Positions 1,433 through 2,859 of a DNA stretch of 7,752 nucleotides are shown piece after piece. Source of the stretch: Sphingobium sp. (GTDB lineage: Bacteria > Pseudomonadota > Alphaproteobacteria > Sphingomonadales > Sphingomonadaceae); assembly GCA_030148625.1 (NCBI GenBank), contig JASBTC010000016.1:1-7752 (forward strand). The letters are read 5' to 3'. The position numbers and the translations under genes were made by a program. Numbering within the stretch: the first letter of the stretch is position 1; each line of letters begins with the position of its first letter. The notes beneath the pieces were generated by a model. It did not search any database, was not told where the DNA came from, and worked only from the letters and a program-made list of their open reading frames with translations.

Positions 1433-2859
1433 GGGGTGTCAACACCGAGATCGGAATCATCCATTTCATCGGTATCGGCGGGATCGGCATGTCCGGCATC
1501 GCCGAGGTGATGCACAATATGGGCTATTCGGTGCAGGGCTCCGACATGGCCGAAAGCTATGTGATCGAGGGTCTGCGCGCGCGCGGCATCAAGGTGATGA
1601 TCGGCCAGCAGGCGGAGAATGTCGAAGGCGTGGCGGTCGTCGTGACCTCGACCGCGATCAAGCGCGGCAATCCCGAGGTCGAGCGCGCCTATGAGCTGCG
1701 CATTCCCGTCGTCCGCCGCGCGGAGATGCTTGCCGAGCTGATGCGGCTGAAATCGACGGTCGCGGTGGCGGGCACGCACGGCAAGACGACGACGACCTCG
1801 ATGATCGCCGCAGTGCTCGATGCCGGCGGAGTCGATCCGACGGTGATCAACGGCGGCATCATCAACAGCTAGGGATCGAATGCGCGGCTCGGCGCCAGCG
1901 AGTGGATGGTGGTCGAGGCCGACGAAAGCGACGGCAGCTTCCTGCGTCTCGACGGCACGATCGCGGTCGTCACCAATATCGATCCCGAGCATCTCGACCA
2001 TTATGGCTCGTTCGACGCGGTCAAATCGGCCTTTATCGAATTCGTCGAGAATGTGCCTTTCTACGGTGCGGCGTTGCTGTGCCTCGACCATCCCGAGGTC
2101 CAGGCAATCCTGCCGCGCATCCGCGACCGGCGTGTCGTGACCTATGGTTTCTCCGCCCAGGCGGATGTGCGCGGCGAACAGGTCACGCCGATCCCGGGCG
2201 GCAACCGCTTCGACGTCGTCATCCGCAGCCGCGACGGATCGCTCCGCCGGATCGAGCGTGTCGAGCTGCCCATGCCCGGGCGTCACAATGTCCAGAATGC
2301 GCTCGCCGCGATCGGTGTCGCGCTGGAGATGGGCATCGACGATGCGACGATCCAGCAGGGTTTCGCGCGCTTCGGCGGCGTGAAAAGGCGCTTCACCAAG
2401 GTTGGCGAAGTTGCGATCGATGGCGGCACGGTGACCGTGATCGACGATTATGGTCATCATCCCGTCGAGATCCGCGCCGTACTGGCGGCCGCGCGCGAAG
2501 GCGTGGCCGGCCGGGTGATCGCGGTGGTCCAGCCGCATCGCTACTCGCGACTGGGCAATCTGATGGACGAGTTCCAGCAGGCGTTCAACGATGCCGATAT
2601 CGTCTATGTGACGCCGGTCTACGCCGCCGGCGAAGCGCCGGTCGAGGGCGTCGATTCCGCGGCCCTGGTCGCGGGGCTCAGGCAGCGCGGGCATCGCGCG
2701 GCCAATGAGATCGCCAGTGCGGCGGCGCTGGCCGAGGCGCTGGCCGCCGATGCTCAGCCCGGCGACATGGTCGTGTGCCTGGGGGCGGGTGACATCACCA
2801 AATGGGCCGCTGGCCTCGCCGATGGCGTGACGGCCGCACGCGCTGGGGTTGCGACATGA
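1429..2859 (+). CDS. murC: MurC, UDP-MurNAc:L-alanine ligase, interrupted by an in-frame TAG at codon 148
   Basis: MurC is the cytoplasmic ATP-dependent ligase that adds L-Ala to UDP-MurNAc, the first step of the stem peptide. The frame is 476 codons, normal for the family, but codon 148 (1870-1872) is TAG. Translation as written gives a 147-residue N-terminal piece; the remainder is open from 1873, with a first in-frame ATG at 1906. All family motifs survive around the break: the UDP-binding loop GIGGIGMSG (from residue 15), the P-loop GTHGKTT (115-121), EADESDGSF (163-171), NIDPEHLDHYG (183-193), the central/C-terminal GRHNVQNALAA (from 284), DDYGHHP (339-345) and QPHRYSR (from 368). No frameshift or other stop is seen, so decay has not spread. 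Neither half could work alone: the P-loop lies in the first piece, the rest of the ATPase domain and the C-terminal domain in the second. GAGGG at 1415-1419 is a plausible ribosome binding site. Both ends overlap their neighbours by ATGA. Family identity is certain; functional status is open. Confidence 0.93.
1870..1872 (+). other. In-frame amber (TAG) codon within murC
   Basis: TAG occupies codon 148 between INGGIINS and GSNARLG. From memory, alphaproteobacterial MurC usually reads NGGIINAYG or a close variant here, so the expected codon is TAC or TAT, one base change away. E. coli MurC has Ala at about this position, so the residue is probably not catalytic. It is the only internal stop in any of the eight genes. 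Confidence 0.9.

What the first reader, a model, noticed from the sequence alone, without database searches (positions are those of the whole stretch)
1870..1872. Essential murC carries an in-frame TAG at codon 148, all else intact
Seen: frame 1429-2859 is continuous, with every MurC motif on both sides of a single TAG between INGGIINS and GSNARLG. The expected codon is TAC or TAT (Tyr), one base away. Known: MurC is essential, and its P-loop (here 115-121) and C-terminal ligase domain must be in one protein. Explanations: base-call or assembly error (most likely a priori); a real mutation rescued by an amber suppressor tRNA or a second murC; or TAG recoded as sense. The site tolerates different residues across the family (Ala in E. 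coli, from memory), so read-through with several amino acids could give active enzyme. All seven complete genes end in TGA, which is compatible with TAG not being a terminator here. That is weak evidence, because five of those stops are forced by ATGA/GTGA overlaps and high GC favours TGA.
Basis: partly seen in the sequence, partly recalled or inferred. Interest (0 to 1): 0.72.

Follow-up and report, generated by a model that had tools for sequence, protein, structure and literature searches.

The report
Lone stop codon in bacterial murC
One contig from a Sphingomonas-like bacterium shows a single stop codon inside an otherwise healthy, essential cell-wall gene, most likely a one-base sequencing or assembly error and not a new way of reading the genetic code.

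Summary
In detail: in an otherwise open murC frame (1429-2859) codon 148 is TAG (1870-1872), the only in-frame TAG in 2,560 codons of the window's genes. The window seems to be a whole 7,752-base contig listed once, collinear with and 88.9% identical to Sphingomonas colocasiae. Tyr stands there in 60 of 60 loci of at least 65% identity and in 119 of 119 listed homologues. The gene is under purifying selection, and the TAG is the window's one departure at 721 otherwise invariant columns: it is very recent or not real. Recoding is very unlikely: in S. colocasiae TAG ends 35 of 236 selected ORFs, RF1 is present, and none of 41 anticodon kinds read is CUA. A divergent MurC-like paralogue in 5 of 5 genomes of that genus scores below the murC cut-off in 4 of 4 scanned and looks like a recycling ligase. 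Best reading: a consensus error. Without reads, a real, rescued amber mutation cannot be excluded.

The parts
1870..1872 (+). in-frame TAG, codon 148 of murC
   Evidence: sequence and translation; Tyr in 60 of 60 loci of at least 65% identity
1429..2859 (+). murC, UDP-N-acetylmuramate--L-alanine ligase, interrupted once
   Evidence: TIGR01082 531.9 bits when the stop is read as X, cut-off 335.1
1429..1872 (+). 5' piece, 147 residues, holds the N-terminal part and the P-loop
   Evidence: TIGR01082 192.5 bits, below cut-off
1906..2859 (+). 3' piece as a mechanical ORF of 317 residues
   Evidence: a 317-residue protein identical to it is listed as P0002 on one contig of 7,752 bases; TIGR01082 304.1 bits, below cut-off; its ATG is the conserved internal Met160

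Best explanation
The window is a single contig, probably from a metagenome, of an unnamed species close to Sphingomonas colocasiae. Its murC is an ordinary, functional gene in the living organism; the TAG at codon 148 is a one-base consensus error (read error at low depth, or assembly error) in this one contig. Shown: the TAG, its uniqueness in the window, purifying selection on the gene, Tyr in the closer relatives examined, and TAG used as a terminator in the nearest sequenced relative. Inferred: that the base is wrong, since no reads were available.
For: MurC is essential and needs both pieces in one protein (established knowledge, recalled; the pieces score below the family cut-off). The gene shows no decay: 116 synonymous against 20 other changed codons relative to S. 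colocasiae, and 1 deviation (the TAG) at 721 columns invariant among the relatives used. No stop stands at this site in 0 of 108 loci that cover it (two pairs are the same gene fetched twice, L100/L111 and L001/L081). No near-identical sibling, intact or broken, is in the list of the best 120: full-length hits reach 94-96% and P0002 stands for 1 contig (the database is clustered, so a sibling could hide in a cluster). A comparable lone TAG lies in murG of another metagenome-assembled contig (L054). 530 of 22,932 possible single-base changes in the window's genes make a stop (2.3%), so in a large contig collection such cases are expected.
Against: No read data. The site lacks the GG-ending preceding 3-mer that passages of PMC4787001 tie to Illumina substitution errors (preceding 3-mers: CTA on +, TCC on -); on the + strand the called base is G, which those passages say is preferentially incorporated. 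The window shows no other sign of poor quality: no second deviation at the 721 columns. One private deviation in murC is in itself not unusual among the other sequences (mean 0.47, maximum 9); what is unusual is that it is a stop.
Confidence: 0.8

Rival explanations
1. A real, recent amber mutation in a living strain, rescued by an amber-suppressing tRNA elsewhere in the genome that inserts some residue at codon 148.
For: The site is a Tyr codon in relatives, one base from TAG, and four MurC sequences aligned carry Ala there, so several residues might do. The gene is otherwise under selection.
Against: No CUA anticodon was read in S. colocasiae (the set read is not complete). There TAG ends 35 of 236 selected ORFs, so a strong suppressor would be costly (inference). 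The stop is in none of 108 loci that cover the site.
Confidence: 0.07
2. A real amber mutation tolerated because a second Mur ligase replaces MurC.
For: 5 of 5 genomes of the S. colocasiae genus carry a second MurC-like protein of 35-38% identity. In the cut list one genome, G085, has two full-length murC matches (81% and 83%), so a second true murC may occur, or that genome may be mixed; not followed up.
Against: 4 of 4 scanned paralogues score 257-288 bits, below the murC cut-off of 335.1 (the fifth, L108, was left out after the range error). In L109 the P-loop reads GTSGKST where MurC has GTHGKTT. In 2 of 3 neighbourhoods viewed (L182, L184; not among the selected ORFs of L183) it lies beside an S66 LD-carboxypeptidase gene, which suggests muropeptide recycling, as for Mpl. 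The dcw murC is under purifying selection.
Confidence: 0.05
3. Real sequence from a dying, inviable or minority cell: a true mutation without rescue.
For: Environmental DNA does not have to come from viable cells (inference).
Against: A consensus contig needs the base in most reads, unlikely for a lethal variant unless depth is very low (inference; depth unknown).
Confidence: 0.07
4. TAG is recoded as sense (Tyr or other) in this lineage.
For: All seven stops in the window are TGA.
Against: One TAG in 2,560 codons while Tyr is written TAT 34 and TAC 9 times; TAG ends 35 of 236 selected ORFs in S. colocasiae and 12 of 296 dcw orthologue ends typed in relatives; RF1 over its cut-off; no CUA anticodon read. 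TGA preference is normal here: 267 of those 296 ends.
Confidence: 0.01

Closest known systems
MurC of Sphingomonas colocasiae (P0004; G450, L111)
   Same: same gene in collinear surroundings, 88.9% nucleotide identity over window 3-7752, 95.8% protein identity
   Different: codon 148 is TAT, no stop
Isolated in-frame stop codons in prokaryotic genes (PMC7918605; passages seen)
   Same: a single stop in a gene that is otherwise under purifying selection
   Different: that study kept stops shared by orthologues of two or more species in order to remove sequencing errors; this stop is in one contig alone
murG of Tardiphaga MAG BWSM_99 (L054)
   Same: one TAG within an otherwise continuous dcw gene on a metagenome-assembled contig
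   Different: other gene, other lineage, 47.5% identity, and the stop lies opposite a gap in the alignment; not checked with reads either

Membership tests
MurC (TIGR01082) | full-length match over the curated cut-off | tested here: met
   531.9 bits over 11-463 with the stop read as X; not met by either piece alone (192.5 and 304.1 against 335.1)
TAG-recoded genetic code | TAG not used as terminator in the lineage | tested here: not met
   nearest relative: 35 of 236 selected ORFs end in TAG; the organism itself could not be tested
TAG-recoded genetic code | tRNA with CUA anticodon | tested here: inconclusive
   none among 41 anticodon kinds read in S. colocasiae, but no Ile tRNA was listed either, so the set is incomplete, and the organism's own genome is not held
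TAG-recoded genetic code | several conserved genes with in-frame TAG | tested here: not met
   one TAG in 2,560 codons of the window's genes
Amber-suppressed nonsense allele | suppressor tRNA in the same genome | not testable with these tools
   no genome held for the window; no tRNA in the window
Conserved programmed readthrough | stop at the same site in orthologues | tested here: not met
   0 of 108 loci; 119 of 119 listed homologues have Tyr

The most novel reading that the evidence does not exclude
The TAG is real and the cells live because an amber-suppressing tRNA, or the divergent MurC-like ligase of this genus, supplies MurC activity: a natural strain with a nonsense codon in an essential gene.
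Probability: 0.12. Interest if true: 0.5.

Novelty: not a real feature. Interest (0 to 1): 0.07.

Why it matters
If real, it would be a natural amber allele of an essential gene kept alive by suppression or by a second ligase. As it stands it is a caution: a nonsense codon in a conserved gene that is seen in one contig should be checked against reads before recoding is proposed.

Tried and rejected
Recoding of TAG: tested through the nearest relative and rejected. Old pseudogene: rejected, no decay. Chimeric join at the site: eight successive codons (148-155) differ from S. colocasiae, but 24-base stretches as dense in differences occur in nine places of the window, the window's codons 149-155 are ordinary among relatives, and identity per 100 bases from 1701 to 2000 is 87, 89 and 94%; rejected. 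Split gene with restart at ATG 1906: that ATG is the conserved internal Met160 and I see no good Shine-Dalgarno match in the bases printed (by eye, not scored); each piece is below the family cut-off; not favoured. Known Illumina error motif at the site: not found (against passages). Plasmid collection: best place 78.0% identity over 72% of the window. tRNA in the window: none. Papers: search listing led to PMC7918605 (passages seen); listing led to PMC4787001 (passages seen); listing was seen as a listing only. No structure prediction was run, since it could not separate the rivals.

Full report
What is there. The window carries the usual dcw order: the end of an ftsW-like gene, then murG, murC, murB, ddl, ftsQ, ftsA and the start of ftsZ (reading frames). 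Names are by recognition; murC was tested, and the annotation under the best plasmid-collection match names murC, ftsA, murG, FtsQ/DivIB and D-alanine--D-alanine ligase. murC runs from ATG 1429 to TGA 2857-2859 with one interruption, TAG at 1870-1872, codon 148. With X at that codon the product matches the murC equivalog model at 531.9 bits (cut-off 335.1); the 147-residue and 317-residue pieces alone stay below the cut-off.

Where it comes from. No whole genome is held for the window. The protein database lists the 3' piece as P0002, one member on one contig of 7,752 bases, the length of the window, so the window is apparently a complete contig seen once; that it is from a metagenome is inference. 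The nearest full-length homologues are 94-96% identical (P0003-P0010), among them MurC of Sphingomonas colocasiae (P0004). That genome is taken to be G450 (100% MurC match; contig of 227,310 bases as for P0004). The window aligns to it from 3 to 7752 in one piece at 88.9% nucleotide identity. The contig is thus from a close but different species (inference).

The site in relatives. Of the 111 loci in hand at that point, 108 gave an alignment over codon 148. The 60 with at least 65% identity have Tyr (30 TAT, 30 TAC); two pairs among them are one gene fetched twice (L100/L111, L001/L081). The 48 more distant ones, which include paralogues, have Tyr in 40 and Pro, Phe, Trp or Arg in 8. None of the 108 has a stop there. 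119 of 119 listed homologues other than the window's own piece have Tyr (one search scored 8,000 candidates and listed the best 120). In 201 genomes sampled from the genus of Sphingomonas paucimobilis, the murC matches that were listed have 'none' or '1 TGA' inside and no TAG (the list was cut). In the 15 loci fetched from there, a stop lies inside my alignments in two only, at position 471 of 475 and 476, so the TGA is the normal end.

State of the gene. Against S. colocasiae, murC has 116 synonymous and 20 other changed codons, and differences at codon positions 1, 2 and 3 are 15, 9 and 125. In a leave-one-out test over seven genes, 721 columns are invariant among the relatives used: 8 to 58 sequences per gene, from loci with murC identity of at least 65%; rows under 90% of the length or with an inner stop were dropped and L100 was left out. 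The window departs at one of these columns, the TAG. For comparison, the other murC sequences have a mean of 0.47 private deviations and a maximum of 9, so one deviation is not unusual; a stop is. The presence of the sister S. colocasiae and of a duplicate (L001/L081) makes these counts lower than they would be without them. The gene is under purifying selection, and the TAG is either very young or an error. The same result shows the contig to be otherwise clean, which is mild evidence against a generally poor consensus.

Recoding. The window's genes hold TAT 34, TAC 9, TAG 1 and TGA 7 in 2,560 codons, stops included. In S. colocasiae, 236 ORFs of at least 150 codons, selected by G+C at the three codon positions from 20 stretches of 20 kb plus L111, end in TGA 173, TAG 35, TAA 28 (a mechanical choice, not an annotation, over about 416 kb of 6.6 Mb). 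Ends of dcw orthologues typed in relatives are TGA 267, TAA 17, TAG 12. RF1 is present (505.1 bits, over its cut-off). There are 48 tRNA matches; the anticodons that ARAGORN read from the 48 loci make 41 kinds, none CUA. One short locus, L160, gave no ARAGORN tRNA and looks by eye like a remnant with a TCC anticodon; success for each of the 30 long loci was not tabulated. No Ile tRNA is listed, so the set is incomplete. Taken together, TAG as sense is very unlikely.

A second murC. Each of 5 genomes of the S. colocasiae genus has a second MurC-like protein of 35-38% identity. Four scanned copies match TIGR01082 best, at 257-288 bits, below the cut-off; the S. colocasiae copy matches mpl less well (139.9 bits, cut-off 388.7). 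It carries GTSGKST at the P-loop. In two of three neighbourhoods viewed (L182, L184) the next gene is an S66 LD-carboxypeptidase; in L183 no such gene was seen among the selected ORFs. I read it, by inference, as a muropeptide-recycling ligase that works like Mpl. It is a conceivable but unproven back-up. Separately, genome G085 has two full-length murC matches of 81% and 83%, not followed up.

Error or mutation. 530 of 22,932 possible single-base changes in the window's genes give a stop (2.3%); at assumed consensus error rates of 1e-4 or 1e-5 this puts a nonsense codon in 1.8% or 0.18% of such contigs (the rates are assumptions). In collections of millions of contigs many such cases are expected, and a scan for oddities will pick them up (inference). 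Among the relatives fetched here, one search flagged 13 inner stops in orthologues: 9 in ddl at alignment positions 7-9 (probably upstream of the true start), 3 in ftsQ (two at positions 2 and 6, one in the variable tail), and one that stands out, a single TAG in murG of a Tardiphaga MAG (L054, 47.5% identity, the stop opposite a gap). None was in murC. The known GG-ending Illumina error motif does not precede the site on either strand (against passages of PMC4787001), so a motif-driven error is not indicated. [quoted passage not shown] this stop is not shared.

Verdict. The likeliest cause is a one-base consensus error in a contig seen once (0.80). A real amber allele with rescue has 0.12 in all, unrescued real DNA 0.07, recoding 0.01. 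Reads would settle it.

Noticed in passing
L109 1504-2862 (+); L106, L107, L110; neighbourhoods L182, L183, L184: A second, divergent MurC-like ligase in 5 of 5 genomes of the S. colocasiae genus (GTSGKST P-loop read in L109), below the murC cut-off in 4 of 4 scanned, next to an S66 LD-carboxypeptidase gene in 2 of 3 neighbourhoods viewed: perhaps a sphingomonad counterpart of Mpl.
   Followed up: partly
L054, murG alignment 992-2071: A single in-frame TAG in murG of a Tardiphaga metagenome-assembled contig, the frame being otherwise continuous.
   Followed up: partly
window 1870-1893: Eight successive codons after the conserved INGGIINS stretch differ from S. colocasiae, seven of them synonymously; ordinary on comparison with other relatives.
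   Followed up: yes
genome G085, contigs C1 and C9: Two full-length murC matches (81% and 83% identity) in one genome of the sample: duplication or a mixed assembly.
   Followed up: no
NZ_CP155750.1, hit H1: An 853,405-base Sphingomonas parapaucimobilis record filed among plasmids carries this dcw cluster: a large second replicon with core genes, or a chromosome piece filed as a plasmid.
   Followed up: no
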